Shown piece after piece: positions 15,104 to 55,878 of a stretch of DNA of 64,000 bases. The translations under genes were made by a program, and so were the position numbers. Source of the DNA: Thuidium tamariscinum (Eukaryota; Streptophyta; Bryopsida; Hypnales; Thuidiaceae); assembly GCA_947034885.2 (NCBI GenBank), contig OX344749.2, positions 11,795,501 to 11,859,500 of the forward strand, given 5' to 3'. The notes under the pieces were generated by a model. That model saw only the letters and a program-made list of their open reading frames with translations. It searched no databases and had not been told where the DNA came from. How positions within the stretch are numbered: position 1 is the stretch's first letter; every line of letters begins with the position of its first letter.

Positions 15104-15133
15104 GGGCTAAAGTAGAAGGCTCTTAAATGGAGC

Positions 15134-19056: not shown

Positions 19057-19309
19057 GATAGTAGCGACTATTTAAGCCTACCTTACTTATCATAGACATT
19101 AGTACATATTTCAAACAATATGTTAGTTCCTAGATAGTAGTTGCATTTAGAACATAGTAGCTATTAGAGCTGACTACTTTAAGATAGCTGACCTATATTG
19201 AATCACTAAAGCAATTATGCATAGTTAGAGTGTAGTTTTTTTTATTGCAAAATTTTTCCCATATATAGGAATAGAATTTGGACATTGAAATGTAGTATAG
19301 AAAATACAT

Positions 19310-31340: not shown

Positions 31341-31634
31341 TGCTCCCTGCTCCGACCACCAGTGGTTGAGCCGCGCCATCCCTCCGCGCCACTCTTCTGG
31401 TGCGAATCCCGCTTCCAGCCCGGCATCACGTGCTCCCTCCTCTCCCCTGCAGGTCGGTTGCTTGCTGCTGCGTGTCCTGGATTCCATTCATTAACCTAAC
31501 TTATCTGCCTGCCTCTCTTCTTCTTGTCCCCGACCTGCCGTGAATCTTACTCGTTGGAATTTTGGTTTTGGATTGTTCGTTGTTTCGTGTCGATGGCGGG
31601 CCATTTCTGAGTTCTTGCTGTCGCCTTGTTATTC

Positions 31635-31659
31635 GGAGAGGAGAGGAGAGGAGAGGAGA
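31635..31659 (+). repeat. (GGAGA)n microsatellite in the CELF leader
   Basis: Five GGAGA units lie in the transcribed leader or leader intron. They are mirrored as (TCTCC)n at 55560-55584 in the other arm with the same unit count, which supports very recent identity of the arms. Confidence 0.85.
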
Positions 31660-32177
31660 TTGGAGAGGAGTGTGTTGAGATTTGCTGTGGCATTTTGCTC
31701 CAGTTGCTTATTTTTGTGAGGTGAAAAGGAACAGCGAATCGGTGGAATATTTCTGAGTTCCGTTGTGTGTTTTGTTTTCTTTTGCTTGTGTTCGAATCCG
31801 GTGGATGTGAATGCGGAGTTGGATTTTTGTTTGGTTTTTGGATTGGTCCCTTTCTTGTTTCGCGTCGACGATTGTCTGAATCTCCTACTCCAAGAAATTC
31901 AAGAATCGAGGAGTTTTTTTTGCGGATTGCTTATACCTGGAGACTGCATCTGTCTCTGGCAGAAGTGTCTTCCTGATGTTTCGACTCTGAACTTCTCACT
32001 CTAGATGGATATCCAGTACCTGGAGTGACAATTTGGTTTGTGATGGATTGGAGCTGTGGATTCGCTCAGTGTATTGGAACTCCGAAGCTTTGAGGCCAGG
32101 TTCAAGAGTCTCACCGTCAGTGCTCTGCAATTTCATGACTTCGCGTAATTGAGCCTTCTGTTGATTTTTCCGCAGTC

Positions 32178-35100
32178 ATGGAGGGCGTGATTGAAAATGG
32201 AGTCAATCGGGCCTTGGATTCTGTGAAACTGTTCGTCGGTCAGCTGCCCAAGCAGATGTCTGAACAGCAGTTAGTGGAAGTTTTCTCCGAAGCAGGAACT
32301 GTGTACGAGATTAACATCATCAAGGACAAGCTCACTAAGCAATCCCGTGGTATGTGCACTTTGTGGATCATCTCCAGGATAACGTGTTGAGACGAGATTG
32401 TAACCATTTGAGACTAGGGTGGTGATGCCCTGGCTAGTGGCTGGATTAAGTGCAGATTAGAAGCGTTCGGTGTTTTAAGTTCCTTCGTAAGAAGCCTTTT
32501 TGATCATGTCTCAACCTCAGCTTAGTGTCATCATTTCCATGCTTAGGACAAGTATTTTAGCATCAACGTAAAGCTCAATCTGGCTCAATCCGGTGTTCCG
32601 GTGTAGACCTTTACCTGTTCCAACTTCCAACCAAGAATTTTGTGGCACGAGTGGAATTCTTTCGTCATGCCGGGATAGGACCAGCAGTCCTTTTGCGTTA
32701 AATTTTTTTTTTATGTTGTACCTCCGACGTGGAATGAAATGTGCGTTCCTCAATTGCGGTGCTTTATCTATGTGAAATTTTTCGAAGCATGTGCGCTTAG
32801 TGAATACGTGAGTTGTTCTTCTAGGGTGCTGTTTCCTGACTTACACTACAAGGCAAGAGGCTGATAAAGCCATCGAGATCTTCCACAATAAGCGCACTCT
32901 TCAGCCAGTTAAGCTTCTTTCTTGATGGCTTGTTTGCAAGTTTCTTTGAGCTCTATGATTCGTTTTTGTGAGTGTAGCTTTGATGTGAGGATGAAGCATC
33001 CAATGCTTGTAATTGTCTATGTAGTCATTCGATGTCTGCGGATGTTGCTCGCTCGACACTGGTCCACGAGACATTCGGGTGCTGGGAGACACAGCGCAAT
33101 TCAACAGTTGCATTGTTGACGCTTCCAGGGTATTCTGAGTGTTTTCTGCACCATTTCGTTGTTTCCATAATCCTGAGGACATATCTTGGTACTTGTGTTT
33201 GGACAGGTTGCCAGCGCCTTGCAAGTGAAATACGCAGATGGCGAGATGGAACGATTAGGTGTGCCTCTTTTCTCTATCCCAACATTTACTCTGTATGTTG
33301 ACAGTATATTGAACCCATTGATGTGTATTCATGGGGTCATATGTTTGATGTCGCTGAAACAAGGGCTCGACTTTGTGAATTCTTCATGCAGTCCGTTCTT
33401 TTATTACATTTTGAAACTCAATGTCGAAACGATCTATTCACGAATTATGTTTTTTTTTCTTTTTGGTACCGGTGGAAGCTGAATGAATCCGGAAAGAGTT
33501 AAAGTCAGAATTAGACCATCTTGGTTGTGCTCTCTAACCTTTTGCGTGTTCCTCTGGTCAGAGCACAAGCTTTTTATCGGCATGCTGCCTAAGGGGGCAT
33601 CGAAAGCAGACGTGATGTCTGTTTTTTCGCCATATGGGGTTGTGAAGGAATTGTCTGTCATCAAAGGCTCTCAGCCCACTAGCAAAGGTGAACTTCCTCT
33701 CCTTACTCTGATCACCCGCAGTTATGGCTTCGACCTTGCCTCGATCCCATTTACTACGAGAAATGAGCCCTCTGTGGCGTTTTTTATTTCAAGTATTGCT
33801 GCGAAACCGGGGTTGGCTGTTTTCTTGCCAAGCGACGTTGTTGTTTTCTTGTGTTCTCTCGGGTGTCCTGCATCATTCCTGTACTGCAAATTGTTTGTTA
33901 CGATTGACGTTTAGATTCTGTGGGTTCAGCATGAAGTTCTATCGTTTCAATCTGATGTGCCACGCCGTCAAGTGTGAACTACCTTCCTGAATGTTCTGAG
34001 AAGTTTAGGTTACAATTAGTTTTCAAAGATACAGGCATTTACATGAGAGGCAATCTACATTCTTTCATAAACAACGGTGGGAGGATTTTATGACAGTAGA
34101 CATTTGCATATTCTTTTGTATCTTGATGCTGTGATTTGAAGTTGTGCCTGCAGGGTGCGCCTTCCTTAAATATGAGACGAAGGAACAAGCTATTGCTGCT
34201 ATCGAGGCTTTGAATGGTGTTCACAAGATGGAGGTAAATTTTTTTTGTGTGTGTGTGTGTGTTTGTGTGTACCTGGTTCGTGATTCTGTTAGTTTTGGAC
34301 TTGTGACAGGGCAATGATAGACTGGGTTGTACTTCTGAGTAATACGGAGTTCCTCACCCTTGCGAATCTCGGAGTGTTTCTGTCGTTCCAGATCAAAGAT
34401 TCAGGCAGCACCTGACATTGTCAAGTCCGTGTTTGTGTTTTAGGGCTCGCTATCTGCGCTGGTGGTCAAGTGGGCTGACACCGAGAAAGAAAGGCAGGCG
34501 CGTAAAGTGCAGAAAGCTCAAGTTGTTTCTCCCCCCATTCCCGGTCAGCAGCCCTCCCTATTTGGCGCTGTACCCATGGGCTATGTAACGGGTCCACCTC
34601 CTTATAATGGCTACCCTTACCAGGTGACATTTCACATCCAGTTCTCTGCGACACTTGTTGGTTTCTTTTTGATGTTTGCCAGGCTGCACGTGAACTTCTA
34701 TATTTTTAGAGTCTGGTGTTCGCGTGGAACGTTTTTGTCACTCCTAGCAGGGTTTCTGTGTTTCTGTTGTGCATGGTTTGATTTGCATAGCCAAATACTG
34801 ATGGAGCAAGGTTTGTTGCAGCCCATGGGTAACTACGCTCTTCCGTACCCGCCGCAGTCTGGCATGGTGGGCTTACCAAGCGCTATTCCTGGAACTCAAC
34901 CTGATCTCACCGCTTATGCACCTATGCAACCAGCGCCTTATGGCTTCGGAGCGCAGCCTTACTCGGTTCCTTATCAAGGCCAGATGATGGGGCATCAAGG
35001 GCAGTCTTATCCCTCTCCACTGTCTCCTTCTCTGATTGGAATGAACACGGCGCAAGCGGCAGCTGCTGCTGTTCGGACTAGTGTGGGTCCTCAGACAGAA

Positions 35101-36843
35101 GGTATCGTAATTTCCTTCCATCACAGCTTTTCTTCGCCTTACTCGAGGTTGTTAGTCCTTGGCAACGTTATTTTTTTCGGACTGTAGTACTTCTCAAACC
35201 GCTTCCCGCTGCTTCTTTCGAGTGCCTTCCTGGGGTCCCAAACTAATGACTGAGACGTCGTTGGAATGGGTGAGCAGTGTGGTGCAGTGAACGATAGAGT
35301 GGCAAGTGTGCAGGATATTGCCGAGTGTCATTTTAGAGGGTGATGCGATATTTGGAGTGGAATCAGATTGTACAACAGTTTATGCAATACCTGAAACGTA
35401 GTACTAGAATGAGTTGGCCCATATTGCTCAAGAGAGATAGACGAGCTGATTTGTTGGTTTCTGCACTACGAATCTTCTCTTGAGTGGATGCTCTGATTGA
35501 CTGAATGTCGTGGAGGATTGAGGGAAACGAGCTCGGTGGTTTTGGTTTTGATTGCAGGTCCGGCCGGCGCGAATCTTTTTATTTATCACATCCCCCCTGA
35601 GTTTGGTGATCAGGAACTATCTACAGCCTTTTCATCTTTTGGAAATGTTATTAGTGCGAAGGTCTTTGTCGACAAGACAACTGGAGCCAGCAAGTGCTTT
35701 GGTATGTTGTTGTGCAGTTGTTATCTCTCATAATTTTCTGAGCATAATTTGCTTCCCTGGATTTGTCTGATGCCTTGTTTTGCTTCCTTCGTAGACTTTG
35801 CATATGTTATTTTCGATTATCTTTTAAGCATCGTTTTTGTTTCCAGTTTGCCCCGAGCCCTACAGCATACGTTCTGACTTCTTTGCTTAAAAATCATAAT
35901 GTTCTGGAGCAGTGGGGATGCTGAACCCTCCCCGCTGTTCACATTGAGTTTTTTAAATTTTCGTGAGGTCAAACTGGTTATGACTGCCGTCTTTTTTGTT
36001 TGCGTTGTAAACCTGCTGACAGTAGCACTATAGGTGAAATTCCACCTCCGGTGTTTCTGTAGATGGGTCGCCTGTCTTCAATCTCATGATTTGAATGCGG
36101 GCCCAACCATCCATTTTCTGGTCACTTTGCGTGGCAATCTTGGGTGGCATGGTTTGTACATTTTTCGATCACAAGTTGTTTACTGCATTCTGGACTACTA
36201 TACGTTTATATAGTTATAAAGTAAGAGATTGTCGGGATCCGCTTATTACTCTCAAGAGAAAAGAATGGTGTTTAGATCGTGAGATTGTTTCCCTCTTCTA
36301 ATTAATCGTTGAAAGATAGAATCCTTGCTAATATAATCTTCATATGCTACCGGTGACGATTGTCCTTTTCGTGAACTTCTAGAACCCCATACTTCAGTAT
36401 GAATCTGGCAAAGTTTTATAAATACTTTCCAAGTATGGATACTTTTGAGTTCCGATTCTTTACATTCTTATTCCATCTTAATAGAACGTTGTGGTTTCTT
36501 GCACATGTAGTTTTCGTTTTAAGAGCCCCGAGGCCTTCGTTAGGGTTTCATCTTTTTGTGTTGATCTTCATTCCACGGAGAAGTTTCAACGTTTTGTGCC
36601 ATTGTATTGTGTTGCTTAGATCTTTTCCGCGTCCGTGTCATTGCCCTTCGCGTTCGTGTTTTACAACTGGGTTGTGTTTCAGAGGAGGCTGATGTGACTT
36701 TGGTGGATGGTGCAGGTTTCGTGAGTTATGACAGTCCTGAAGCAGCCCAAGCCGCTATCAACGTAATGAACGGATTCCAGTTGAGTGGGAAAAGGTTGAA
36801 GGTTCAGCTGAAGCGGGATACGAAACAAAGTAAACCCTACTGA
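32178..36843 (+). CDS. CELF/Bruno-like RNA-binding protein, copy A (three RRMs)
   Basis: Nine exons: 32178-32349, 32825-32907, 33207-33258, 33562-33687, 34154-34233, 34444-34623, 34822-35101, 35558-35701, 36716-36843. All introns are GT-AG, and the exons sum to 1245 nt, or 414 residues in frame. RRM1 (about 17-100) has RNP2 LFVGQL and RNP1 GCCFLTY. RRM2 (about 103-183) has LFIGML and GCAFLKY. After a Gly/Pro/Gln/Tyr-rich linker, RRM3 (about 328-406) has LFIYHI and GFVSYD. This two-plus-one arrangement and length fit plant Bruno-like proteins (Arabidopsis BRN1/BRN2 are of similar size). These bind 3' UTR elements and control mRNA stability and translation in the cytoplasm. A strong acceptor (TTTTTCCGCAG, ends 32175) two bases before the ATG implies a leader intron. 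The copy is intact and appears identical to copy B. Confidence 0.93.
34246..34270 (+). repeat. (TG)n microsatellite in CELF intron 5
   Basis: A TG run with one TTT interruption follows the exon 5 donor. The same repeat number and interruption occur in the other arm at 52949-52973. Such hypervariable tracts rarely stay identical between old duplicates. Confidence 0.85.
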
Positions 36844-39590
36844 AACCCGTTGGGACCAGGGTTCTCCTGTCACCAAGAGTAGAGACGCACATTAGAGTGT
36901 CCGTGCGGGGAAGTAATTGAACTGGCCCTGTAATTGATCCGCTGATCGGGCGCCAACACCAATCACACTGCAGGTGGGGAAAACTGCTTTTTCCTAGTCT
37001 AGCAAGCTTGTTTGCTTCATTGTTCTCTGGTGGTCGCTGGCGCCCCGGTGACATGTACCATTTATGGCGAATTTAGGAAGTTGAATGTGGAGTATCTCCT
37101 TTTCAGTTGTTCACGTCTCTCTCCTGTGTTGTGTGCAAAAGTTCCAAGCGGCAGTCTGTCGTCGGTTTGTTCCGAGTTTTTTTACGTCCATGTTCGTATG
37201 GGCCTGAAGTTCGTCGTTGTGGTGCCGTGTTGGTCAGCATTGTTTCGTGGACATGTGATCCATTGGCCTTGTCCTGTAGTCACTGTTGCTGTGATCTTTA
37301 TTCTCGGTTTATTCTTGACGGTCCCGCTATGCGTACAGGCATGAGTGAGAGGGATTGAGTGCATACGTTTGCTTTACTCTGAAGGGGTTTTACTTGTGAC
37401 TATTCCCAGTAACTTTTTTTTCCCCGGATCACCCTATCGTTAAGATTTCTTTGTCGCCTGTTCCTGTTACCCCCCACGTTGTGACTCGTGTGGATTTTGA
37501 AGCTATTCCGTGGTGTTTTCGAACGTCCGACGATGGGTTGCATTCATCCGTGTGTAGTTCTGTTTCTTACTGTTACAGTACTCCATGTAAGAGAGAACTT
37601 GTTCGTAGCATCCGCTGCAACCAGCGGGTTATGGGTTCACTTGTTGGTGTAAGTAGCCTGCATCTTCGTCCCTGTTTCCTGTTTATTGTTCTTCTGACTC
37701 CAAGTTTGAAGTTTCTTCTGTATCCTACAGATTCACCTGGTGTGATGTTGCGTGAACATGTGTGTTGTTGTAGCCTGTGGGAATGGGCAGTGGTCCATGA
37801 TGTGCGTGTGTTTTTCCTCAGCCCAAGTTTTACAGGTTTTTTTCCGCTGTAATCATGGTGTTCCCGTATCGTTCGGTTTTTTCCGTGTGTTGTGGAGACT
37901 CGTTTTTGCGTGGCCGTTCGGGTGTTGCCATTAGTTTCCAGGTACTGAATGCATTGTACCTGCAGTGGGATGTGTGCATCATCCACCCGCACGAGCTGTT
38001 TATTTTTAGTTATTAAGGCCTTGTTTGACTTGGGGCCATGGGTTCGTATTTTTTCATGTTTCGCGTCCATTTATTTTCCAGGACTGTAAGATGCCCTGTT
38101 CTGTGTCTGATTTTCCAGGATTTCCAGGACGAAGGAGGAAGTCTTTTTTGGGACCAAGTTTGAAGAGCGTAGAGCCCTGCATTGACGAGAAGATGGCATG
38201 TCCGATGCACGGGAGGACGCGACGTCGGCTCGAAGCTCTTCGTTCTGCTCGTCTTTTTCTCCGCAGTTATTTCTGCAGCACGGTGTCTGGGGCCCTCTCC
38301 GTGAGTATCCTGTCTGTTTGTAAGTTTTTTTCTAAGTGGACGGTGCATTGCTTCAGATTGCATTTCGGAGTCTGAGGTGCTTGGCTTCGTCAGATACAAC
38401 TGTGTGACCTCTTTGCCGTCGGCATTCGTCGAGGACCCGGAAATCCTGGAATTTTGTTCCTGGCCGAGTGGGCCTGTCCGAAACGTCCATCTCCCATTCC
38501 TCGAGCATGTGGAAATTTCGAACGTTGTTGTGGGTCTATGTTTTCGTGCTACGAGTTCGTTGTACTTCAGGTTTCAGTCCTGGCTTGCGTGTGAATGTCG
38601 TAGTTGTATGTTCTTGCACGGCGCCGATTGCCTTACTTTCGTTTGAATGGTGCAGCTGGGAGCACTCATGCACAACGGCCGCTGCCCTTGGAGCTTGGCG
38701 TCGAAGAATGGTAGACGGTGTTGATTCTGCTTCATTCCTTTGAGAGCTGAGCCGCTGGATTGAGGATCATTTTTTGGTTGTGCTTGTTCTTCGTTCTTGT
38801 TTTGATTTTCTTTGCGTTTTTCAGGGAAATAACCACTGCATCGTGCACTGAGTTGGGAGTCGTTGGTGTAGGATAGGAAGTGCAGTTATGGCCCTGTGCT
38901 CAAGTGTGGCGCAGTCGTCCGGGATCTCCGTGCAGCAGCGTGTAAGGCGTTTGCGAACATGTCAAGGTAAGGAATTTTATCAATGACCGTTAGGGTTGTT
39001 TTTGTGCGAGTAGAACGACTTGATTTTCGAACCACGTAGTTTGAGGTATTTTGTTGGGCTTCTGTTTTACATTGATGTTCGACGTTTCTAAATATATGTG
39101 CGTGCATTTTTTTATTCGATTAGACCTTCTTGAAGGTTTTGTTCCATATTGGTGCCATTGGTATGAACTGGAGCCAAATATGTGTGCTGATGGTGGGACT
39201 GGAAGCTCGAAGCCATGCTTTGCTTGCTTCTGTGTAATAAGTGTAGAGTCGCTTCAGCACATCATGTTGCAGCCCAGAGTATGATAGCATGCGACTGTGC
39301 TGTGTTCGGTAGGCAGATTCTCTTCTGAAATACTTAGATTTCAGTGTACTCTAATTTCCGGTGTTTCCGGGCTTGTAATGAAGGCTACTAGGACTCCTGT
39401 GCGTGTCCCTCTCTATTGAACCTGGCACTGAATTCTGTGTCGTGAGCTTGTTATGGAGTATGCATGCGTCAAAATGCCAGCCTTTATTATGGTTGGTGGA
39501 GTCCATCACACATGTTGATTCCCGCCGATTGATCTTTGAGGGTGCGCTGGAATACATTTGTGCTACAACATCGGGAAACTGGCGGTGTTA
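36844..39590. other. Region downstream of CELF copy A inside the arm, no gene recognised
   Basis: About 2.7 kb of balanced-GC, T- and G-rich plus-strand sequence that looks like 3' UTR or intron material (for example a donor CATGTCAAG/GTAAGG near 38968). The open frames up to 165 codons on either strand lack domains and overlap each other, so none is annotated. It may be a long or spliced 3' UTR or a non-coding transcript. Its mirror lies at 47629-50375. Confidence 0.45.
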
Positions 39591-40453
39591 GGTCTGGCTT
39601 GCAGTAGAAGACAGTTTCAGAACCGCATTCCAAAATTCTACGAGGGGACTTGAAGCGATGTGAGTTGTGTTTCGTTCGTATGTTGTAACTTGCGAGTTTG
39701 GAAGTCGGGAATCGCTATGTTTGACAATTCCCATTGCAGGCTGCTTTACAGCTCATCACACATGACATGCGGACATGTACAGCAAGTCATCATTTGTTTG
39801 GTTTAAAATCTGTACGATTGTACTGATGAGATGCTTATTTTCTTGAATCGGTTGTGAAATAGTTTTTCTTGGATCTCCTGGGCTCACGCAGACTTTAGGG
39901 TATTTTGGAGGTTCAGTCAGTTCGCAAACCCTGACCCCTATTTGACTTGGTGATCAAGGCAAGATAAAGGTTATAAATCAGCTGCTGCCGGGGCACTGTT
40001 GAACACGGTGGGGGAAGGCGACGAGGAGCTTTTTAACTTGCAGAGAGGGCGAGGTGTGCTTCTTTATCGCAGTGGTTGAGGATGTGCCACGACTTGGGAA
40101 ACGGAACTGAGTCACGGTATTCACTCTGAGCTGCCTGCCGGCGGTCATTGAGGGCGGGGCGGGTTGGAATTGCGAGTGTTTTCCTTGAATGCTTACGTCC
40201 CAGCAGTGAGAAAGTTATTAGGGCAGATTTGCGAATCAATCTGCTAGAGGCGACGTCGTTTCCGAGTAGCCGCCTAGGTATTCGTTTGCGGAAAATTTGG
40301 GATCTGATGGGGAATTGTTATGGCAAGAATTAGGGTTTAACGCGCGAAAGGCAATTTGGTGACAAACGAGGAATTCAATCTCTGCGCGTGGGAGAATCCT
40401 CTTAGATCTTGAATTTTGAGAAAAGTGCGGCAGGTTTGAAAAGATTGCCCTCA
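39591..40453 (+). promoter_or_regulatory. Palindrome spacer start and promoter region of the SDR gene
   Basis: Unique sequence begins here. It is moderately GC-rich with no supported frame on either strand, and it presumably holds the promoter and leader of the gene at 40454. No TATA box stands out. Confidence 0.4.
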
Positions 40454-41302
40454 ATGGCGATTCGGGGTGGGAAGCAAGCGCTCCATCATTTGCGCAATCT
40501 CCGCAACGTGGCCATTCCACGAGCACATTACTCTGTCTCCACTGCAGTCGGTGTACAGTCCCCGAAGCCCGTGGAAGCCGCGGAGCCCTTGGAATCGAAG
40601 TCCGTGGAGCGGAAGAAGGTTTTGGTTCTCGGCGGGAACGGCTATGTGGGCACGCACGTCTGCAAGGAAGCCCTTGCTCGTAGTATTCCCGTGGCGAGCT
40701 TGAGCCGCTCAGGTCGTCCCAGTGGAGTCCTGGACCCTTGGACTTCTGAGGTGGAGTGGGTGAAAGGCGATCTCTTCCATCCTTCGCAGTGGCGCCACAC
40801 CTTAGACGACATCTCCGCCGTGATCTCCTGCGTGGGCGGATTCGGCTCCAACGACCAAATGCAGCGGATCAACGGCGCGGCGAATGTCCAAGCGATCCGC
40901 GCAGCCTCCCAAGCCGGCGTGGACCGCTTCGTCTTCATCTCCGCGCACGACTTCGGCCTGCCGTCGTTCTTTCTGCGAGGCTACTACGCGGGCAAACGGG
41001 CGGCGGAGGACGAGCTTCTGACCAAGTTCCCCTACAGCGGCGTCATTCTGCGCCCCGGCTTCATCCACGGCGTGCGGCAAGTGGGTAAGGTGAAGCTCCC
41101 TCTCAATGCCATTGGCTCCCCTCTGGAAATTTTGCTCAAGCACAAGGCCATCTCTCAGGTTCCCGTGCTGGGGAAACTGCTGGTGCCGCCGGTCAAGGTC
41201 GCCACTGTGGCCAAAGTTGCCGTCCGATCCGCCACCGACAATGCCATCCCGCCAGGAGTCATGGATGTGTGGAGCATCCTCCACTATGGGGAAGCGCACT
41301 AA
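40454..41302 (+). CDS. Atypical short-chain dehydrogenase/reductase, COQ11-like, probably mitochondrial
   Basis: A single uninterrupted exon of 282 codons. The first ATG in frame (40454) gives MAIRGGKQALHHLRNLRN, a basic amphipathic start typical of a mitochondrial presequence. The NAD(P)-binding Rossmann motif GGNGYVG lies at residues 60-66 after a hydrophobic strand (KKVLVLG). The YxxxK active-site-like motif is Y177-YAG-K181, and RPGFIHG (about 200-206) fits the substrate region. This is the atypical SDR family related to NDUFA9 and yeast Coq11, with several plant members annotated as NAD(P)-binding Rossmann proteins. Coq11 is tied to coenzyme Q synthesis, but the plant role is inferred. 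Lack of introns and high third-position GC contrast with neighbouring genes, so a retrocopy origin is possible. It is the only intact gene in the palindrome spacer. Confidence 0.85.
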   Translation: MAIRGGKQALHHLRNLRNVAIPRAHYSVSTAVGVQSPKPVEAAEPLESKSVERKKVLVLGGNGYVGTHVCKEALARSIPVASLSRSGRPSGVLDPWTSEVEWVKGDLFHPSQWRHTLDDISAVISCVGGFGSNDQMQRINGAANVQAIRAASQAGVDRFVFISAHDFGLPSFFLRGYYAGKRAAEDELLTKFPYSGVILRPGFIHGVRQVGKVKLPLNAIGSPLEILLKHKAISQVPVLGKLLVPPVKVATVAKVAVRSATDNAIPPGVMDVWSILHYGEAH

Positions 41303-41720
41303 TGAAGGGCCCAAGGATTGTCTGAGTGCCCACTGCCCAGCTCTTGTATAAGTTACATGATGTATCGGCGTCTCGCTGAGCATGTCCTTCTGTTCTTAGA
41401 AGCTGCTTGCTGCTTGCTTTGATGAATTTTTGTAGCTTAGGATTTGACGAATAATCGAGTTTCCGATCAATTCTACTTGTGAGTGATAGCAGTTTCTGAA
41501 TGAATAGAGCAAAAGCCTTTTCTAGGGTTTAGGGTAACTCACAGCCTAATCACTGTCTCATTTCTCTGCTACTTTACGTATGATCGTAACATTCTTGAAG
41601 CCTGCACGTGATTCTTCCGGAAGGATGGTCTGCCAACTAGTTCAGGAATGTTGTCATGTACTCTAGGGCACAATTTCTTACGACCTGCCGATTTTGTCAT
41701 TCAAAGAATGTTGCAATTTG
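41303..41720. other. 3' flank of the SDR gene
   Basis: Presumed 3' UTR followed by intergenic DNA; no further gene seen. Confidence 0.5.
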
Positions 41721-41950
41721 TTAACCCTTGAAGGACGGACTGGTGGCCGCGGAAACCATGCATTTTGATACCGTGTGACATCACCTACTTTGAAAAAGTC
41801 AAATATATGCATTGGAAGTCAAAGTATTGTAGAAGATCTTTCCTTTCCACCCCCAATACCGAGGATGAAAAGTTGCATTTTTGTCCTGGAAGGAAAGATT
41901 CTTTGTCATTCAACAGATGCCAAATGTCCATGGCGTCATTCAAGGGTTAA
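41721..41950 (-). mobile_element. TTAA-type (piggyBac-like) MITE family B, complete copy
   Basis: TTAA at 41721-41724 and 41947-41950. The ends are CCCTTGAAGGAC and GTCATTCAAGGG (one mismatch across the inverted repeat). Interior blocks (GTAGAAGATCTTTCC, ACCGAGGATGAAAAG) are the reverse complement of blocks in the 14875 copy. Confidence 0.75.
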
Positions 41951-44753: not shown

Positions 44754-44829
44754 CCATGAAACCGCCTGTCCGCCAGCCGTCCGCCCCGTCCGCCGGCCAT
44801 CTGCCGGCCGTCCGCCAGGGTTGTCATAT

Positions 44830-45013
44830 CGGACGGAAAAGGGTTGAACGGCTGTAACTTTTGCAAAAAGTCTTCAAATTGGGTAAATAAGATGTTTTTT
44901 GGCATCTACAGAAACTGTAAATGCCAAAAAACATCTTATTTACCCAATTTGAAGTTTTTTTGCAAAAGTTACAGCCGTTCGAAGTTCGCAGCCGATCAAC
45001 TCTATTCCGTCCG
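44830..45013. repeat. Palindromic hairpin module 2 inside the hAT element
   Basis: A second copy of the module with the same outer CGGACGG/CCGTCCG and centre (TGGCATCTACAG / CTGTAAATGCCA). The left arm lacks the CTGCGAACTTCGAA block found in module 1. The two modules are separated by CCGTCCGCC-type repeats. Confidence 0.85.
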
Positions 45014-45799
45014 CCATGAAACCGCCTGTCCGCTAGCCGGCCGCCCCGTCCGCCGGCCGTCCGTCCGCTGGCCGCCATGAAATCGCCTGTCCGCCAGCTG
45101 TCCGCCATAAAACTGCCTGTCTGCCAGCCGTCCACCAACTGTCCGCCATTCAACTGCCTGTCCGCCAGCCGTCCGCTAGTAAAAGCCGTCCGAAATTTTT
45201 TACCGAGCCTTTTACCGAGCGTTTTACCCAGCGTCCGCTACGTCCGCCAGCGTCTAGACGTCTGAACGTCCGGACGTCCGATTTTTGGACGCATTTTTGG
45301 AAAAATGCGGACGTCCGCACAACCCTACATTTGAGGAAAGTTGATTTTGATGAGATTTGACCAAAAGTTCGATCTTAGAACCATTACCATTGTTCAAAAA
45401 TTGCGTGCCAAAAAAAAAAAATTGTACTCATGTGGAGGACATAAAAAAACATATTTTTAATTTTTTTTTGGAATTTGTAGGTTTTACACCTATGCAAATA
45501 GACCATGAAAGTTTCGTCATCAAATCATTAAATTTAGACACTGTGAACGTAATGATAACCATAAACGTAATTTTGTGACGCTCAACGAAAATGTTTTTAA
45601 ATATAAAATGATTTTTTTTAATTTCTGAAAAATAAGGGATCTAATAAACTTCAAGTTAGGTATGTTCAATAAAAATTTCATTTTCATTGGACTTAATCTC
45701 CAAAAGTTATTGTAGACAACAAAAAAGTGGTTCAAATTGTGACATGAAATAGGACAGGTGTTTCTTGCAATGACCCTGTATTGGATTGCACTCCCTTGG

Positions 45800-46170
45800 T
45801 ACACAATATGTTTCCAAGGATATGTTGTGAGTTGAGGCTCATGACCTACATTTCAAGGTGAATAGGTGTGACTATGGTCAACACTATTTTGCTAGCAAAC
45901 GATTGAATATGTTTTGTAAAGACTAGCCACCTACCCTTAGACAAGAAATGGAGTTATATTGCATCACCAAGGAGATGTACAGTACATAAGGATATTGAAT
46001 GGTGCTATCGGAATTCTCCAAGCATGCTTTGCAATTATTCAAAGTCCTTACCACCATTGGAGCTTGGAGGCAATTTCTAACATTAGACTCACATATTGCA
46101 TATTACACAATATGATCCTTGAAGATGAGCAAGAATTAGGACTAGAAGACATCATTTCTAGTTAGAAGAA
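45800..46170 (+). pseudogene. PIF/Harbinger transposase remnant (C-terminal part)
   Basis: Translation near 45988-46165 gives KDIEWCYRILQACFAI-like sequence when small frameshifts are allowed, then WSLEAISNIRLTYCILHNMI and LEDEQ. The C-terminal CILHNMILEDE block with an upstream ILQ-x-RFAII-like block is typical of plant PIF/Harbinger DDE transposases. The frame is interrupted upstream and the catalytic N-terminal part is not recognisable. Repeat R with its hAT insertion lies just upstream and may have split the gene. Confidence 0.65.
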
Positions 46171-47029
46171 GAATCATTGACAAGAATGTTGACACTCATT
46201 CAGCATTTGTAGGCACTTGATGGGGCCAATTTGGCAAAGCTATTCATATATGTGACTTGCAATTTAATCAATTTTAAGTGCATGGTGCCAATTTGGTGCC
46301 GATTATGTATATTCATATTTCCTTTCCAATACAATTAATAATAAAAAGATTGGCTTTGCAAACCCAATCCTCTATTCACTAAGCTTCTATTGTCTAAATT
46401 GTTGAACTGCCCTAATATACGGTATCAAGCATGCTTAAGAGGATTGACCTAGACAATGTTATTCCAATCACTACCATGGGATTTACTGATAGCTAGCAAT
46501 AAAATTGATGTAATCATGTAGACCTAGCTTGACTAACCTAGCCCAAATTCATAGTAGTCGCTATTGATCCATCCATCTATAATATTGATCTATCCAACTT
46601 TTACAATACAAAAACAAAGCTACGTGAAAAGTCTTCCAAATCCTTACTATGGAGGCCTTTAGACATTTTTCATTGTTTGAGTATTGCCCATCACCTAGGC
46701 TAAAGTCATTGTTGCTAATGGAGACCTAATTGCCCTACATTCCTCTATGGCAAGATCCAATAGCATTGCAATACTAAAAATATAAATTATCACCGAGATC
46801 ATTGTCTACAACAACAAAATTTGGCACCAAATTGCCAAGATTTGCAAAAAGGTTAGAAGAGTTTTGGAATGCAGTTCTGAAACTGTCTTGTACTGCAAGC
46901 CAAACTTAAGGTAGAACCACCTATAACCAATAGGCTCCCCATAGACAACCTTTTGATGGACGTATTTCCAACCAAGGCTAGAATGAGTTTTTTTCTCATT
47001 TCTAAAGTCGGGACTAAAAGTTCATGGCA
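46171..47029. other. AT-rich spacer DNA
   Basis: I see no gene or clear repeat boundary here. Confidence 0.55.
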
Positions 47030-47349
47030 CATAAGAGGTTTTCTTCCATAGTTGAGAGACTGCGAGTTCCCGGATTGTGGGAACTCGCTGCAGCAGCTGA
47101 TCTACAGTGATCTCATGTGGCACAGAGACTGCGACATCAGATAATAATATTTTATTAAATTAAAAATATATTTTATTATTATTATTTTATTAATATTTTT
47201 ATTTTATTATTAATATTTTTTCATTTTTTCATTTTTTCACTTTTTTAATATTTTTTTAATATTTTTTTATTCTGATCAGCAGGGCTGGTTCACAGAAATG
47301 GGGAACGAGGCTGAAACAATCTCTCAACACCCCCGAAAAACCTCTTATG
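47030..47349. mobile_element. MITE family A, copy 4 (320 bp)
   Basis: CATAAGAGGTTTT at 47030 is mirrored by AAAACCTCTTATG ending at 47349. A second paired block (GTTGAGAG/CTCTCAAC) lies just inside. The core is TTATTATT-rich. The family GTGG...CCAC block is present in weakened form (CATGTGGCAC...GCGACATCA, about 47113-47138). It lies 280 bp from the inner end of the right palindrome arm. Confidence 0.75.
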
Positions 47350-47628
47350 CATGTTCCAATGTAGTGTGCAAGAAAGTAGAAAAGAGTGAGTAAAAATGTA
47401 GTTTTCTGCGTGCTCGAAATTAGAAGACTCCACAGATTGGTATTTGGTCAAGCACACTTTATGCCTTCTAAAATTCATAGTAATTTCAATTCATGTGATA
47501 AAATTACCAAAGTTTTTGAAATCCCCATCATTTTTATCTTTACACCTCTGAAAATATTTGCTTTGCTTTGCACTAAAGTAGATCATGCCTAAAATACCGT
47601 AAATGATCGATTACGGGTGGATCTACCT

Positions 47629-50600
47629 TAACACCGCCAGTTTCCCGATGTTGTAGCACAAATGTATTCCAGCGCACCCTCAAAGATCAATCGGCGGGAA
47701 TCAACATGTGTGATGGACTCCACCAACCATAATAAAGGCTGGCATTTTGACGCATGCATACTCCATAACAAGCTCACGACACAGAATTCAGTGCCAGGTT
47801 CAATAGAGAGGGACACGCACAGGAGTCCTAGTAGCCTTCATTACAAGCCCGGAAACACCGGAAATTAGAGTACACTGAAATCTAAGTATTTCAGAAGAGA
47901 ATCTGCCTACCGAACACAGCACAGTCGCATGCTATCATACTCTGGGCTGCAACATGATGTGCTGAAGCGACTCTACACTTATTACACAGAAGCAAGCAAA
48001 GCATGGCTTCGAGCTTCCAGTCCCACCATCAGCACACATATTTGGCTCCAGTTCATACCAATGGCACCAATATGGAACAAAACCTTCAAGAAGGTCTAAT
48101 CGAATAAAAAAATGCACGCACATATATTTAGAAACGTCGAACATCAATGTAAAACAGAAGCCCAACAAAATACCTCAAACTACGTGGTTCGAAAATCAAG
48201 TCGTTCTACTCGCACAAAAACAACCCTAACGGTCATTGATAAAATTCCTTACCTTGACATGTTCGCAAACGCCTTACACGCTGCTGCACGGAGATCCCGG
48301 ACGACTGCGCCACACTTGAGCACAGGGCCATAACTGCACTTCCTATCCTACACCAACGACTCCCAACTCAGTGCACGATGCAGTGGTTATTTCCCTGAAA
48401 AACGCAAAGAAAATCAAAACAAGAACGAAGAACAAGCACAACCAAAAAATGATCCTCAATCCAGCGGCTCAGCTCTCAAAGGAATGAAGCAGAATCAACA
48501 CCGTCTACCATTCTTCGACGCCAAGCTCCAAGGGCAGCGGCCGTTGTGCATGAGTGCTCCCAGCTGCACCATTCAAACGAAAGTAAGGCAATCGGCGCCG
48601 TGCAAGAACATACAACTACGACATTCACACGCAAGCCAGGACTGAAACCTGAAGTACAACGAACTCGTAGCACGAAAACATAGACCCACAACAACGTTCG
48701 AAATTTCCACATGCTCGAGGAATGGGAGATGGACGTTTCGGACAGGCCCACTCGGCCAGGAACAAAATTCCAGGATTTCCGGGTCCTCGACGAATGCCGA
48801 CGGCAAAGAGGTCACACAGTTGTATCTGACGAAGCCAAGCACCTCAGACTCCGAAATGCAATCTGAAGCAATGCACCGTCCACTTAGAAAAAAACTTACA
48901 AACAGACAGGATACTCACGGAGAGGGCCCCAGACACCGTGCTGCAGAAATAACTGCGGAGAAAAAGACGAGCAGAACGAAGAGCTTCGAGCCGACGTCGC
49001 GTCCTCCCGTGCATCGGACATGCCATCTTCTCGTCAATGCAGGGCTCTACGCTCTTCAAACTTGGTCCCAAAAAAGACTTCCTCCTTCGTCCTGGAAATC
49101 CTGGAAAATCAGACACAGAACAGGGCATCTTACAGTCCTGGAAAATAAATGGACGCGAAACATGAAAAAATACGAACCCATGGCCCCAAGTCAAACAAGG
49201 CCTTAATAACTAAAAATAAACAGCTCGTGCGGGTGGATGATGCACACATCCCACTGCAGGTACAATGCATTCAGTACCTGGAAACTAATGGCAACACCCG
49301 AACGGCCACGCAAAAACGAGTCTCCACAACACACGGAAAAAACCGAACGATACGGGAACACCATGATTACAGCGGAAAAAAACCTGTAAAACTTGGGCTG
49401 AGGAAAAACACACGCACATCATGGACCACTGCCCATTCCCACAGGCTACAACAACACACATGTTCACGCAACATCACACCAGGTGAATCTGTAGGATACA
49501 GAAGAAACTTCAAACTTGGAGTCAGAAGAACAATAAACAGGAAACAGGGACGAAGATGCAGGCTACTTACACCAACAAGTGAACCCATAACCCGCTGGTT
49601 GCAGCGGATGCTACGAACAAGTTCTCTCTTACATGGAGTACTGTAACAGTAAGAAACAGAACTACACACGGATGAATGCAACCCATCGTCGGACGTTCGA
49701 AAACACCACGGAATAGCTTCAAAATCCACACGAGTCACAACGTGGGGGGTAACAGGAACAGGCGACAAAGAAATCTTAACGATAGGGTGATCCGGGGAAA
49801 AAAAAGTTACTGGGAATAGTCACAAGTAAAACCCCTTCAGAGTAAAGCAAACGTATGCACTCAATCCCTCTCACTCATGCCTGTACGCATAGCGGGACCG
49901 TCAAGAATAAACCGAGAATAAAGATCACAGCAACAGTGACTACAGGACAAGGCCAATGGATCACATGTCCACGAAACAATGCTGACCAACACGGCACCAC
50001 AACGACGAACTTCAGGCCCATACGAACATGGACGTAAAAAAACTCGGAACAAACCGACGACAGACTGCCGCTTGGAACTTTTGCACACAACACAGGAGAG
50101 AGACGTGAACAACTGAAAAGGAGATACTCCACATTCAACTTCCTAAATTCGCCATAAATGGTACATGTCACCGGGGCGCCAGCGACCACCAGAGAACAAT
50201 GAAGCAAACAAGCTTGCTAGACTAGGAAAAAGCAGTTTTCCCCACCTGCAGTGTGATTGGTGTTGGCGCCCGATCAGCGGATCAATTACAGGGCCAGTTC
50301 AATTACTTCCCCGCACGGACACTCTAATGTGCGTCTCTACTCTTGGTGACAGGAGAACCCTGGTCCCAACGGGTTTCAGTAGGGTTTACTTTGTTTCGTA
50401 TCCCGCTTCAGCTGAACCTTCAACCTTTTCCCACTCAACTGGAATCCGTTCATTACGTTGATAGCGGCTTGGGCTGCTTCAGGACTGTCATAACTCACGA
50501 AACCTGCACCATCCACCAAAGTCACATCAGCCTCCTCTGAAACACAACCCAGTTGTAAAACACGAACGCGAAGGGCAATGACACGGACGCGGAAAAGATC

Positions 50601-53600
50601 TAAGCAACACAATACAATGGCACAAAACGTTGAAACTTCTCCGTGGAATGAAGATCAACACAAAAAGATGAAACCCTAACGAAGGCCTCGGGGCTCTTAA
50701 AACGAAAACTACATGTGCAAGAAACCACAACGTTCTATTAAGATGGAATAAGAATGTAAAGAATCGGAACTCAAAAGTATCCATACTTGGAAAGTATTTA
50801 TAAAACTTTGCCAGATTCATACTGAAGTATGGGGTTCTAGAAGTTCACGAAAAGGACAATCGTCACCGGTAGCATATGAAGATTATATTAGCAAGGATTC
50901 TATCTTTCAACGATTAATTAGAAGAGGGAAACAATCTCACGATCTAAACACCATTCTTTTCTCTTGAGAGTAATAAGCGGATCCCGACAATCTCTTACTT
51001 TATAACTATATAAACGTATAGTAGTCCAGAATGCAGTAAACAACTTGTGATCGAAAAATGTACAAACCATGCCACCCAAGATTGCCACGCAAAGTGACCA
51101 GAAAATGGATGGTTGGGCCCGCATTCAAATCATGAGATTGAAGACAGGCGACCCATCTACAGAAACACCGGAGGTGGAATTTCACCTATAGTGCTACTGT
51201 CAGCAGGTTTACAACGCAAACAAAAAAGACGGCAGTCATAACCAGTTTGACCTCACGAAAATTTAAAAAACTCAATGTGAACAGCGGGGAGGGTTCAGCA
51301 TCCCCACTGCTCCAGAACATTATGATTTTTAAGCAAAGAAGTCAGAACGTATGCTGTAGGGCTCGGGGCAAACTGGAAACAAAAACGATGCTTAAAAGAT
51401 AATCGAAAATAACATATGCAAAGTCTACGAAGGAAGCAAAACAAGGCATCAGACAAATCCAGGGAAGCAAATTATGCTCAGAAAATTATGAGAGATAACA
51501 ACTGCACAACAACATACCAAAGCACTTGCTGGCTCCAGTTGTCTTGTCGACAAAGACCTTCGCACTAATAACATTTCCAAAAGATGAAAAGGCTGTAGAT
51601 AGTTCCTGATCACCAAACTCAGGGGGGATGTGATAAATAAAAAGATTCGCGCCGGCCGGACCTGCAATCAAAACCAAAACCACCGAGCTCGTTTCCCTCA
51701 ATCCTCCACGACATTCAGTCAATCAGAGCATCCACTCAAGAGAAGATTCGTAGTGCAGAAACCAACAAATCAGCTCGTCTATCTCTCTTGAGCAATATGG
51801 GCCAACTCATTCTAGTACTACGTTTCAGGTATTGCATAAACTGTTGTACAATCTGATTCCACTCCAAATATCGCATCACCCTCTAAAATGACACTCGGCA
51901 ATATCCTGCACACTTGCCACTCTATCGTTCACTGCACCACACTGCTCACCCATTCCAACGACGTCTCAGTCATTAGTTTGGGACCCCAGGAAGGCACTCG
52001 AAAGAAGCAGCGGGAAGCGGTTTGAGAAGTACTACAGTCCGAAAAAAATAACGTTGCCAAGGACTAACAACCTCGAGTAAGGCGAAGAAAAGCTGTGATG
52101 GAAGGAAATTACGATACCTTCTGTCTGAGGACCCACACTAGTCCGAACAGCAGCAGCTGCCGCTTGCGCCGTGTTCATTCCAATCAGAGAAGGAGACAGT
52201 GGAGAGGGATAAGACTGCCCTTGATGCCCCATCATCTGGCCTTGATAAGGAACCGAGTAAGGCTGCGCTCCGAAGCCATAAGGCGCTGGTTGCATAGGTG
52301 CATAAGCGGTGAGATCAGGTTGAGTTCCAGGAATAGCGCTTGGTAAGCCCACCATGCCAGACTGCGGCGGGTACGGAAGAGCGTAGTTACCCATGGGCTG
52401 CAACAAACCTTGCTCCATCAGTATTTGGCTATGCAAATCAAACCATGCACAACAGAAACACAGAAACCCTGCTAGGAGTGACAAAAACGTTCCACGCGAA
52501 CACCAGACTCTAAAAATATAGAAGTTCACGTGCAGCCTGGCAAACATCAAAAAGAAACCAACAAGTGTCGCAGAGAACTGGATGTGAAATGTCACCTGGT
52601 AAGGGTAGCCATTATAAGGAGGTGGACCCGTTACATAGCCCATGGGTACAGCGCCAAATAGGGAGGGCTGCTGACCGGGAATGGGGGGAGAAACAACTTG
52701 AGCTTTCTGCACTTTACGCGCCTGCCTTTCTTTCTCGGTGTCAGCCCACTTGACCACCAGCGCAGATAGCGAGCCCTAAAACACAAACACGGACTTGACA
52801 ATGTCAGGTGCTGCCTGAATCTTTGATCTGGAACGACAGAAACACTCCGAGATTCGCAAGGGTGAGGAACTCCGTATTACTCAGAAGTACAACCCAGTCT
52901 ATCATTGCCCTGTCACAAGTCCAAAACTAACAGAATCACGAACCAGGTACACACAAACACACACACACACACAAAAAAAATTTACCTCCATCTTGTGAAC
53001 ACCATTCAAAGCCTCGATAGCAGCAATAGCTTGTTCCTTCGTCTCATATTTAAGGAAGGCGCACCCTGCAGGCACAACTTCAAATCACAGCATCAAGATA
53101 CAAAAGAATATGCAAATGTCTACTGTCATAAAATCCTCCCACCGTTGTTTATGAAAGAATGTAGATTGCCTCTCATGTAAATGCCTGTATCTTTGAAAAC
53201 TAATTGTAACCTAAACTTCTGAGAACATTCAGGAAGGTAGTTCACACTTGACGGCGTGGCACATCAGATTGAAACGATAGAACTTCATGCTGAACCCACA
53301 GAATCTAAACGTCAATCGTAACAAACAATTTGCAGTACAGGAATGATGCAGGACACCCGAGAGAACACAAGAAAACAACAACGTCGCTTGGCAAGAAAAC
53401 AGCCAACCCCGGTTTCGCAGCAATACTTGAAATAAAAAACGCCACAGAGGGCTCATTTCTCGTAGTAAATGGGATCGAGGCAAGGTCGAAGCCATAACTG
53501 CGGGTGATCAGAGTAAGGAGAGGAAGTTCACCTTTGCTAGTGGGCTGAGAGCCTTTGATGACAGACAATTCCTTCACAACCCCATATGGCGAAAAAACAG

Positions 53601-55878
53601 ACATCACGTCTGCTTTCGATGCCCCCTTAGGCAGCATGCCGATAAAAAGCTTGTGCTCTGACCAGAGGAACACGCAAAAGGTTAGAGAGCACAACCAAGA
53701 TGGTCTAATTCTGACTTTAACTCTTTCCGGATTCATTCAGCTTCCACCGGTACCAAAAAGAAAAAAAAACATAATTCGTGAATAGATCGTTTCGACATTG
53801 AGTTTCAAAATGTAATAAAAGAACGGACTGCATGAAGAATTCACAAAGTCGAGCCCTTGTTTCAGCGACATCAAACATATGACCCCATGAATACACATCA
53901 ATGGGTTCAATATACTGTCAACATACAGAGTAAATGTTGGGATAGAGAAAAGAGGCACACCTAATCGTTCCATCTCGCCATCTGCGTATTTCACTTGCAA
54001 GGCGCTGGCAACCTGTCCAAACACAAGTACCAAGATATGTCCTCAGGATTATGGAAACAACGAAATGGTGCAGAAAACACTCAGAATACCCTGGAAGCGT
54101 CAACAATGCAACTGTTGAATTGCGCTGTGTCTCCCAGCACCCGAATGTCTCGTGGACCAGTGTCGAGCGAGCAACATCCGCAGACATCGAATGACTACAT
54201 AGACAATTACAAGCATTGGATGCTTCATCCTCACATCAAAGCTACACTCACAAAAACGAATCATAGAGCTCAAAGAAACTTGCAAACAAGCCATCAAGAA
54301 AGAAGCTTAACTGGCTGAAGAGTGCGCTTATTGTGGAAGATCTCGATGGCTTTATCAGCCTCTTGCCTTGTAGTGTAAGTCAGGAAACAGCACCCTAGAA
54401 GAACAACTCACGTATTCACTAAGCGCACATGCTTCGAAAAATTTCACATAGATAAAGCACCGCAATTGAGGAACGCACATTTCATTCCACGTCGGAGGTA
54501 CAACATAAAAAAAAAATTTAACGCAAAAGGACTGCTGGTCCTATCCCGGCATGACGAAAGAATTCCACTCGTGCCACAAAATTCTTGGTTGGAAGTTGGA
54601 ACAGGTAAAGGTCTACACCGGAACACCGGATTGAGCCAGATTGAGCTTTACGTTGATGCTAAAATACTTGTCCTAAGCATGGAAATGATGACACTAAGCT
54701 GAGGTTGAGACATGATCAAAAAGGCTTCTTACGAAGGAACTTAAAACACCGAACGCTTCTAATCTGCACTTAATCCAGCCACTAGCCAGGGCATCACCAC
54801 CCTAGTCTCAAATGGTTACAATCTCGTCTCAACACGTTATCCTGGAGATGATCCACAAAGTGCACATACCACGGGATTGCTTAGTGAGCTTGTCCTTGAT
54901 GATGTTAATCTCGTACACAGTTCCTGCTTCGGAGAAAACTTCCACTAACTGCTGTTCAGACATCTGCTTGGGCAGCTGACCGACGAACAGTTTCACAGAA
55001 TCCAAGGCCCGATTGACTCCATTTTCAATCACGCCCTCCATGACTGCGGAAAAATCAACAGAAGGCTCAATTACGCGAAGTCATGAAATTGCAGAGCACT
55101 GACGGTGAGACTCTTGAACCTGGCCTCAAAGCTTCGGAGTTCCAATACACTGAGCGAATCCACAGCTCCAATCCATCACAAACCAAATTGTCACTCCAGG
55201 TACTGGATATCCATCTAGAGTGAGAAGTTCAGAGTCGAAACATCAGGAAGACACTTCTGCCAGAGACAGATGCAGTCTCCAGGTATAAGCAATCCGCAAA
55301 AAAAACTCCTCGATTCTTGAATTTCTTGGAGTAGGAGATTCAGACAATCGTCGACGCGAAACAAGAAAGGGACCAATCCAAAAACCAAACAAAAATCCAA
55401 CTCCGCATTCACATCCACCGGATTCGAACACAAGCAAAAGAAAACAAAACACACAACGGAACTCAGAAATATTCCACCGATTCGCTGTTCCTTTTCACCT
55501 CACAAAAATAAGCAACTGGAGCAAAATGCCACAGCAAATCTCAACACACTCCTCTCCAATCTCCTCTCCTCTCCTCTCCTCTCCGAATAACAAGGCGACA
55601 GCAAGAACTCAGAAATGGCCCGCCATCGACACGAAACAACGAACAATCCAAAACCAAAATTCCAACGAGTAAGATTCACGGCAGGTCGGGGACAAGAAGA
55701 AGAGAGGCAGGCAGATAAGTTAGGTTAATGAATGGAATCCAGGACACGCAGCAGCAAGCAACCGACCTGCAGGGGAGAGGAGGGAGCACGTGATGCCGGG
55801 CTGGAAGCGGGATTCGCACCAGAAGAGTGGCGCGGAGGGATGGCGCGGCTCAACCACTGGTGGTCGGAGCAGGGAGCA
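47629..55878 (-). repeat. Right arm of the large palindrome (8250 bp)
   Basis: Reverse complement of 31341-39590 with constant coordinate sum 87219. The inner 47629-50375 is the mirror of the gene-free region 36844-39590. 50376-55041 carries CELF copy B, and 55042-55878 its leader. The spacer between the arms is 8038 bp. Confidence 0.95.
50376..55041 (-). CDS. CELF/Bruno-like RNA-binding protein, copy B (three RRMs)
   Basis: Exons on the minus strand, 5' to 3': 54870-55041, 54312-54394, 53961-54012, 53532-53657, 52986-53065, 52596-52775, 52118-52397, 51518-51661, 50376-50503. Splice sites, introns and the predicted 414-residue product match copy A exactly, so the RRM and linker description given for copy A applies. 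The stop codon faces the stop of copy A across 13.5 kb, so the two genes converge. The difference between copies lies upstream: the identical arm ends about 840 bases before the ATG, and beyond it the promoter sequences have diverged. The two genes could therefore differ in expression while making the same protein. Confidence 0.93.

What the first reader, a model, noticed from the sequence alone, without database searches (positions are those of the whole stretch)
31341..55878. A 24.5-kb palindrome with apparently identical 8250-bp arms and an 8038-bp spacer
Positions in the two arms sum to 87219 throughout. All translated frames match between arms, including in introns and microsatellites. 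Nuclear genes rarely sit in such perfect inverted repeats. Known cases are mostly ampliconic palindromes on sex chromosomes kept identical by arm-to-arm gene conversion, or very recent duplications. A bryophyte UV sex chromosome or another low-recombination region would be a natural setting, but that is speculation.
Basis: partly seen in the sequence, partly recalled or inferred. Interest (0 to 1): 0.88.

Follow-up and report, generated by a model that had tools for sequence, protein, structure and literature searches.

The report
Near-identical mirror-image moss gene pair
A moss chromosome carries two mirror-image copies of a gene for an RNA-binding protein that look like an old duplication recently copied over one by the other, and the same genome holds more such pairs on other chromosomes.

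Summary
The palindrome is real: 31341-39590 against the reverse complement of 47629-55878 gives 8250 bp with one difference (33998 against 53221), not zero. Each arm holds one complete nine-exon gene for a three-RRM BRN/CELF-like RNA-binding protein; the protein search finds BRN exons only in these two arms. It is not a simple recent duplication. Arm homology continues past both edges, at 297/348 aligned bases outside and 44/49 inside, and these flanks match only each other in the genome. A 720-bp TA-flanked transposon sits exactly at the inner edge of the core. This fits an old inverted duplication whose core was recently overwritten by arm-to-arm gene conversion. A sex chromosome is not supported: the window lies on the largest contig, both local orthologues carry Ceratodon chromosome-11 gene names, and 10 inverted pairs with equal domain scores, this one included, lie on 7 contigs. 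Of the nine others, three were checked as DNA: blocks of 3292, 1250 and 1000 bp without a mismatch. Reads and sister species were not available.

The parts
31341..39590 (+). left arm, core almost without divergence (8250 bp)
   Evidence: 1 mismatch in 8250 to the right arm
47629..55878 (-). right arm, core almost without divergence (8250 bp)
32178..36843 (+). BRN/CELF-like RNA-binding protein gene, copy 1: 9 coding exons (32178-32349, 32825-32907, 33207-33258, 33562-33687, 34154-34233, 34444-34623, 34822-35101, 35558-35701, 36716-36843), 414 aa
   Evidence: all introns GT-AG, one open frame; 3 RRM_1 stretches, E 1.3e-54; collinear with moss homologues, 99% to unnamed P0001, 93% Ceratodon
50376..55041 (-). 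BRN/CELF-like gene, copy 2, mirror of copy 1, identical coding sequence
   Evidence: the only arm difference is intronic; exon matches in both arms
33998..33998 (.). only arm-to-arm difference (G here, C at the mate 53221 read in arm orientation), intron 4
36844..39590 (+). 3' part of the arm with T>A and G>C strand skew; inferred long 3' UTR or downstream part of the same transcription unit
   Evidence: composition; the skew weakens near the inner edge but goes on to about 40340, so it does not mark the edge; inference, no transcripts seen
30930..31340 (+). outer left flank, diverged homologue of the outer right flank
   Evidence: 297/348 aligned bases identical; no other place in the genome than the mirror flank
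55879..56289 (-). outer right flank, diverged homologue of the outer left flank
   Evidence: its own genome-wide search did not complete
39591..39639 (+). inner left flank, diverged homologue of 46858-46906
   Evidence: 44/49; the only second place in the genome is the mirror position
46858..46906 (-). inner right flank, homologue of 39591-39639
46909..47628 (.). 720-bp DNA transposon with 13-bp terminal inverted repeats (AGGTAGAWCCACC, 12/13), TA on both sides; ends exactly at the inner edge of the core, absent from the left side
   Evidence: a second element with such ends and TA flanks lies at L003:1647-2286
39591..47628 (.). 8038-bp spacer between the arms
40454..41302 (+). NAD(P)-binding epimerase-like gene in the spacer (282 aa, At1g32220-like names among homologues)
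   Evidence: PF13460 E 8.6e-19; 76% to Ceratodon M758_11G094500

Best explanation
An old inverted duplication of one gene, the BRN/CELF-like RNA-binding protein gene, left two convergent copies about 8 kb apart around an epimerase-like gene. The copies then diverged. Later, ectopic gene conversion between the arms (homologous recombination or break-induced repair using the other arm as template) overwrote nearly the whole arm, up to the first heterologies: a transposon on the inner side and a diverged, indel-bearing stretch on the outer side. Shown: the arms, the intact reading frames, the diverged flanks found only at this locus, the transposon at the edge, and three further inverted gene pairs with mismatch-free blocks on C10 and C2. 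Inferred: that conversion rather than another copying process did it, its direction, whether it was one event or recurrent, and that both genes are expressed. By the usual logic of such pairs, conversion keeps both copies in step (fixed double dosage) and crossing-over between the arms can invert the spacer; neither was tested.
For: Core 1/8250 different against 49 of 307 aligned flank positions (JC about 0.00012 against 0.18; Fisher p 1.5e-71; the inner flank was recounted as 5 differences in 49, so 308 positions). The inner flank matches only itself and its mirror position genome-wide; the outer left flank likewise, so neither is a dispersed repeat at that sensitivity. The core stops at the insertion point of a TA-flanked transposon present on one side only, and homology resumes at 90% behind it. 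The C10 RRM pair shows the same mosaic: 3292 bp without a mismatch, 0.5-2.5% divergence per 200-column bin over most of the next 1.2 kb outward and 9% in the outermost bin, a steep fall inward with 74-90% islands. Two carrier-gene pairs are 1250/1250 and 1000/1000 identical, letters outside the domain matches included.
Against: No outgroup: the paralogous-variant test against a sister species used for willow (PMC7023750, passages read) could not be run. The diverged flanks are short (about 400 bp and 49 bp). No clear sign of GC-biased conversion (arm mean 45.8% in 1-kb windows; 10.8% of 489 non-arm windows are as rich). The pairs outside the window were picked because their scores were equal, so their identity is partly by selection.
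Confidence: 0.84

Rival explanations
1. A very recent inverted segmental duplication (template switching, break-induced replication) created the second arm within roughly the last tens of thousands of years; the similarity of the flanks is coincidental or part of a repeat family.
For: 1 difference in 8250 alone would fit; sharp edges; an arm query has only two places in the genome.
Against: Collinear diverged homology beyond both edges that was found nowhere else in the genome; the inner edge coincides with a transposon insertion behind which homology resumes; similar mosaic at a second locus.
Confidence: 0.08
2. Assembly artefact: a false inverted duplicate or a fold-back read built the second arm.
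For: Near-zero divergence; no reads could be examined here.
Against: An artefact would not create 10-15% diverged homologous flanks outside both edges, a transposon on one side only, a single-base difference, or a spacer gene of its own. Spacer orientation could still be wrong if no read spans an arm.
Confidence: 0.04
3. Ampliconic palindrome of a U or V sex chromosome, kept identical because there is no partner chromosome.
For: Same architecture as mammalian and willow sex-chromosome palindromes (PMC7023750, abstract and passages); a moss genome.
Against: C1 is the largest of 11 chromosome-size contigs; in the Hypnales moss Climacium the likely sex chromosome is not among the three largest (PMC11503002, passages); the two local genes have orthologues named M758_11G in Ceratodon (that chromosome 11 is an autosome there is recalled); equal-score inverted pairs lie on C1, C2, C3, C5, C6, C8 and C10. 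The sex chromosome of this genome was not identified.
Confidence: 0.03
4. Strong selection, not conversion, keeps the two copies alike.
For: The protein is conserved among mosses (93% Ceratodon).
Against: About 7 kb of non-coding DNA in the arm is equally identical, while about 1118 differences would be expected there at the flank rate.
Confidence: 0.01

Closest known systems
Palindromes of the Salix purpurea W chromosome (PMC7023750; abstract and passages read)
   Same: Large inverted repeats in a plant nuclear genome, with highly conserved stretches and evidence of gene conversion.
   Different: Sex-determination region, two palindromes with four arms over 200 kb, conversion in limited stretches; here one pair of 8.25-kb arms on a contig that looks autosomal, alike nearly end to end.
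Mammalian X/Y palindromes and the human FLNA-EMD inverted repeats (recalled; GC-biased conversion in X palindromes, PMC8981503, seen only in a search listing)
   Same: Inverted arms over 99% alike around a spacer, kept alike by conversion; spacer inversion expected.
   Different: Animal sex chromosomes; conservation across species shown there, not here.
Tandemly arrayed genes of Physcomitrella patens (statement in PMC3045890 citing Lang et al. 2008; passages read; the cited paper was not read)
   Same: Neighbouring moss paralogues strikingly alike, attributed to concerted evolution by gene conversion; high rate of homologous-recombination repair in P. patens (PMC3729371, passages).
   Different: Here the arrangement is inverted with a spacer gene, and tract edges with diverged flanks are resolved.
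Drosophila hsp70 inverted pairs (recalled; PMC3071340 on hsp70 clusters of other flies seen only in a listing)
   Same: Autosomal inverted gene pair under concerted evolution.
   Different: Shorter arms, stress genes, animal.
Arabidopsis PAI1-PAI4 inverted repeat (recalled)
   Same: Near-identical plant gene copies in inverted repeat, able to trigger silencing.
   Different: No silencing or small-RNA data here; long spacer.

Membership tests
Inverted gene pair homogenised by ectopic gene conversion | Two inverted paralogues with a near-identical core | tested here: met
   8249/8250
Inverted gene pair homogenised by ectopic gene conversion | Mosaic divergence: core far more alike than homologous flanks found only at this locus | tested here: met
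   297/348 and 44/49 in the flanks
Inverted gene pair homogenised by ectopic gene conversion | Arms alike within species but different between species | not testable with these tools
   no relatives held for this genome (statement)
Inverted gene pair homogenised by ectopic gene conversion | Conversion in progress or spacer inversion polymorphism in populations | not testable with these tools
   no reads or second individual
Sex-chromosome ampliconic palindrome | Lies on a sex chromosome or non-recombining region | tested here: inconclusive
   leans against: C1 largest contig, Ceratodon chromosome-11 gene names, equal-score inverted pairs on 7 contigs; sex chromosome not identified
Sex-chromosome ampliconic palindrome | Arms over 99% identical | tested here: met
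Sex-chromosome ampliconic palindrome | Reproductive, sex-biased genes in the arms | not tested
   BRN-like gene; no expression data
Recent segmental duplication | No older homology outside the duplicated block | tested here: not met
BRN/CELF-like RNA-binding protein | Three RRM domains, full-length collinearity with named BRN1 proteins | tested here: met
   3 stretches of PF00076; 90-91% to Physcomitrium BRN1
TA-flanked TIR transposon (Tc1/mariner- or Stowaway-like, names recalled) | Terminal inverted repeats plus TA target duplication | tested here: met
   12/13 TIR, TA both sides; second element with such ends
TA-flanked TIR transposon (Tc1/mariner- or Stowaway-like, names recalled) | Transposase family | not tested
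   720-bp element; its coding capacity was not searched in any call

The most novel reading that the evidence does not exclude
This moss carries a genome-wide set of autosomal gene palindromes, inverted pairs on most chromosomes, whose arms are kept identical by frequent arm-to-arm conversion. In a haploid-dominant plant the mirrored copy would act as the built-in repair template that diploids get from a homologous chromosome, and the pairs would persist as a distinct architecture rather than as leftovers of recent duplication.
Probability: 0.3. Interest if true: 0.8.

Novelty: new member of a known kind. Interest (0 to 1): 0.55.

Why it matters
Conversion-maintained palindromes are usually discussed as a sex-chromosome answer to lost recombination. 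A moss with such pairs on several ordinary chromosomes, with a resolved converted core and diverged edges, would separate the mechanism from sex linkage. It would offer a haploid plant group in which conversion rate, tract length and the barrier effect of a transposon can be measured directly, and would warn that near-identical moss paralogues are not necessarily young.

Tried and rejected
Simple recent duplication: rejected because of diverged flanks found only at this locus. Flanks as a dispersed repeat: not supported, only the mirror position matches. Sex-chromosome palindrome: not supported (see rivals). The insert as PIF/Harbinger with a TTA duplication was one reading in my note; searches show TA on both sides, so I use TA. 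GC-biased conversion: inconclusive. The idea that strand skew marks the arm as exactly one transcription unit: not borne out, since the skew runs about 700 bp past the inner edge. No Rfam match at gathering score and no ARAGORN tRNA (bacterial code) in the window. The first exon model failed and was replaced. A WD40 gene nearby gave no Ceratodon row among the best 120 and did not help synteny.

Paper searches for palindromes or gene conversion in mosses (lists shown were 15 of 143 papers, 12 of 3060 and 15 of 72) showed me no title on autosomal conversion-homogenised gene palindromes in mosses; this is a view of an open-licence library only, and two papers I wanted were not held.

Against a universal pattern: the p450 scan (92 of 547 candidates scored) gave no same-contig pair with equal scores and mostly same-strand arrays; PP2C gave no equal pair, only one same-strand pair on C7 with equal bits but unequal E-values.

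Corrections to my notes: the inner flank is 44/49, not 43/48; the C10 RRM pair has 5 equal match pairs, not 6.
Full report
WHAT IS THERE. The window is G000:C1:11795501-11859500 of a 363.2-Mb genome in 19 contigs. Eleven contigs are chromosome-sized: 54.2, 47.9, 47.4 and then 32.5 to 17.5 Mb. Three large chromosomes followed by eight smaller ones resemble two Hypnales mosses whose chromosome tables I saw in passages, Climacium dendroides and Straminergon stramineum, each with 11 pseudomolecules (PMC11503002 and PMC11992514). The best named protein matches are Ceratodon 93%, Physcomitrium 90%, Sphagnum 80%; an unnamed metagenome protein is 99%.

THE PALINDROME. 31341-39590 against the reverse complement of 47629-55878 differs at 1 of 8250 positions. 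A 1001-bp arm query has two places in the genome, the two arms. In 264 kb around the window nothing else comes near it.

THE GENES. Each arm carries one intact nine-exon gene, all introns GT-AG, 414 aa, three RRM domains, collinear with BRN1-named proteins. The copies are convergent. In the protein search of the whole genome, 16 of 41 matches are BRN exons, 8 in each arm; the other 25 are RRM stretches of 30-56% identity elsewhere. The single arm difference is intronic, so both copies encode the same protein. T and G excess on the sense strand runs through the arm; it weakens near the inner edge but continues about 700 bp beyond it, so transcript ends cannot be read from it. The spacer holds an epimerase-like gene.

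WHY NOT A RECENT DUPLICATION. Homology does not stop at the core. Outside, 30930-31339 aligns with 56289-55890 at 297/348 aligned bases with many gaps; inside, 39591-39639 aligns with 46906-46858 at 44/49. Searched against the whole genome, the inner flank finds itself and its mirror position and nothing else, and the outer left flank finds itself and two pieces of its mirror flank and nothing else. They look like the older remains of the same inverted duplication. The inner edge of the core coincides with a 720-bp transposon with 12/13 terminal inverted repeats and TA on both sides, present in the right half only; a second element with such ends lies about 55 kb away. A core that stops exactly at a one-sided insertion, with divergence behind it, is what a conversion tract halted at a heterology looks like. 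Core and flanks differ about 1500-fold in Jukes-Cantor distance. With assumed rates of 2.5e-9 to 9e-9 per site and year (the lower from PMC7023750, the others recalled) this gives about 7,000-24,000 years for the core and about 10-36 million years for the flanks; the absolute figures are loose, the contrast is not.

IT IS NOT ALONE. The BRN search also listed other RRM genes in mirror order. I then read six family scans for same-contig pairs with equal bits and equal E-value, counting by eye from the tables: p450, 95 matches, 92 of 547 candidates scored; Mito_carr, 150 matches, 150 of 211 scored; RRM_1, 120 matches, 150 of 247 scored; Ras, 88; PP2C, 43; Proteasome, 26. Pairs in which every listed match is equal: 10 inverted, including the window's own (C10 RRM, C5, C1 30.18 Mb, C8, the window, C3, C10 carrier, C2 carrier, C6 Ras, C1 24.25 Mb proteasome; on 7 contigs), and 3 direct (C1 12.08 Mb, C5 11.28 Mb, C10 Ras). 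Of the 10 inverted, 6 rest on two or more matches and 4 on one; of the 3 direct, 1 rests on more than one. Four further direct pairs are equal in some matches only (two carrier pairs, one Ras, one proteasome). In the C8 pair the open frames around the match differ (270 and 221 aa), so that pair is not alike throughout. Ten of 13 inverted is a modest excess (my arithmetic, one-sided binomial 0.046); p450 and PP2C gave no equal pair. In the five multi-match inverted pairs outside the window the mirrored coordinates sum to one constant each (27601937, 5135359, 60372054, 13495673, 57273830), so there is no net indel between their matches. Inverted pairs with unequal scores also occur (for instance C2, C4 and C6 RRM).

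DNA CHECK OF OTHER PAIRS. Of the nine inverted equal pairs outside the window, three were fetched. C10 RRM: 4706 columns at 98.4% with 3292 bp exact; outward 0.5-2.5% divergence per 200-column bin, 9% in the outermost bin; inward a steep fall, then islands at 74-90%. C10 carrier: 1250/1250. C2 carrier: 1000/1000. How far the two carrier blocks extend was not seen. An RRM pair with unequal scores on C2 is 92.8% over 1166 columns.

SEX CHROMOSOME. BRN and epimerase orthologues are Ceratodon M758_11G056200 and M758_11G094500; from memory, chromosome 11 is an autosome there. In Climacium the authors suspect chromosome 4 as U or V. With equal-score inverted pairs on 7 contigs the architecture is hardly a sex-chromosome feature. 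The sex chromosome of this genome itself was not identified.

MECHANISM AND LIMITS. Shown: an inverted gene pair with a near-identical core, older homologous flanks found only there, and a heterology at the edge. Inferred: ectopic conversion, its recurrence and any benefit. Moss biology fits: a paper whose passages I read cites high similarity of tandemly arrayed genes in Physcomitrella as a sign of gene conversion (PMC3045890). Not tested: reads, populations, sister species, expression, small RNAs. The assembly's spacer orientation could be arbitrary if no read spans an arm.

Noticed in passing
G000:C10:13777761-13782460 and 13824180-13819484 (L053, L054): A second gene palindrome (RRM gene) with a 3292-bp exact block, diverged edges, and a spacer of about 37 kb.
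   Followed up: yes
G000:C10:6742181-6753492 and G000:C2:28633289-28640541 (L057-L060): Two inverted pairs of mitochondrial carrier genes, 1250/1250 and 1000/1000 identical in the stretches fetched.
   Followed up: partly
G000:C5:2551779-2583580, C1:30176591-30195463, C8:9756625-9791316, C3:43348324-43422961, C6:6131185-6138778, C1:24253518-24267019: Further inverted same-contig gene pairs with equal domain scores, not checked as DNA.
   Followed up: no
window 44542-45023: A compact foldback element (nested inverted repeats, 82-93% arms) next to CCGTCCGCC-type tandem repeats in the spacer.
   Followed up: no
C1:11742381-11743465 (window coordinates -53119 to -52035) and C1:11899440-11900183 (window +103940 to +104683): Other long self-complementary foldbacks, 1.1 kb and 0.75 kb, both at 86%, in the neighbourhood.
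   Followed up: no
L003:1647-2286: A 640-bp element with nearly the same terminal inverted repeats and TA flanks as the insert at the palindrome's inner edge, so this is probably a transposon family.
   Followed up: partly
window 1-12000: Strongly AT-rich stretch (26-28% G+C) with one open frame of 120 aa or more (8233-8706), against about 36% mean G+C in non-arm 1-kb windows nearby.
   Followed up: no
G000:C2:44300886-44508058, C6:3436518-3560375, C10:17436205-17556041: P450 genes listed in same-strand arrays, the opposite arrangement to the mirror pairs.
   Followed up: no
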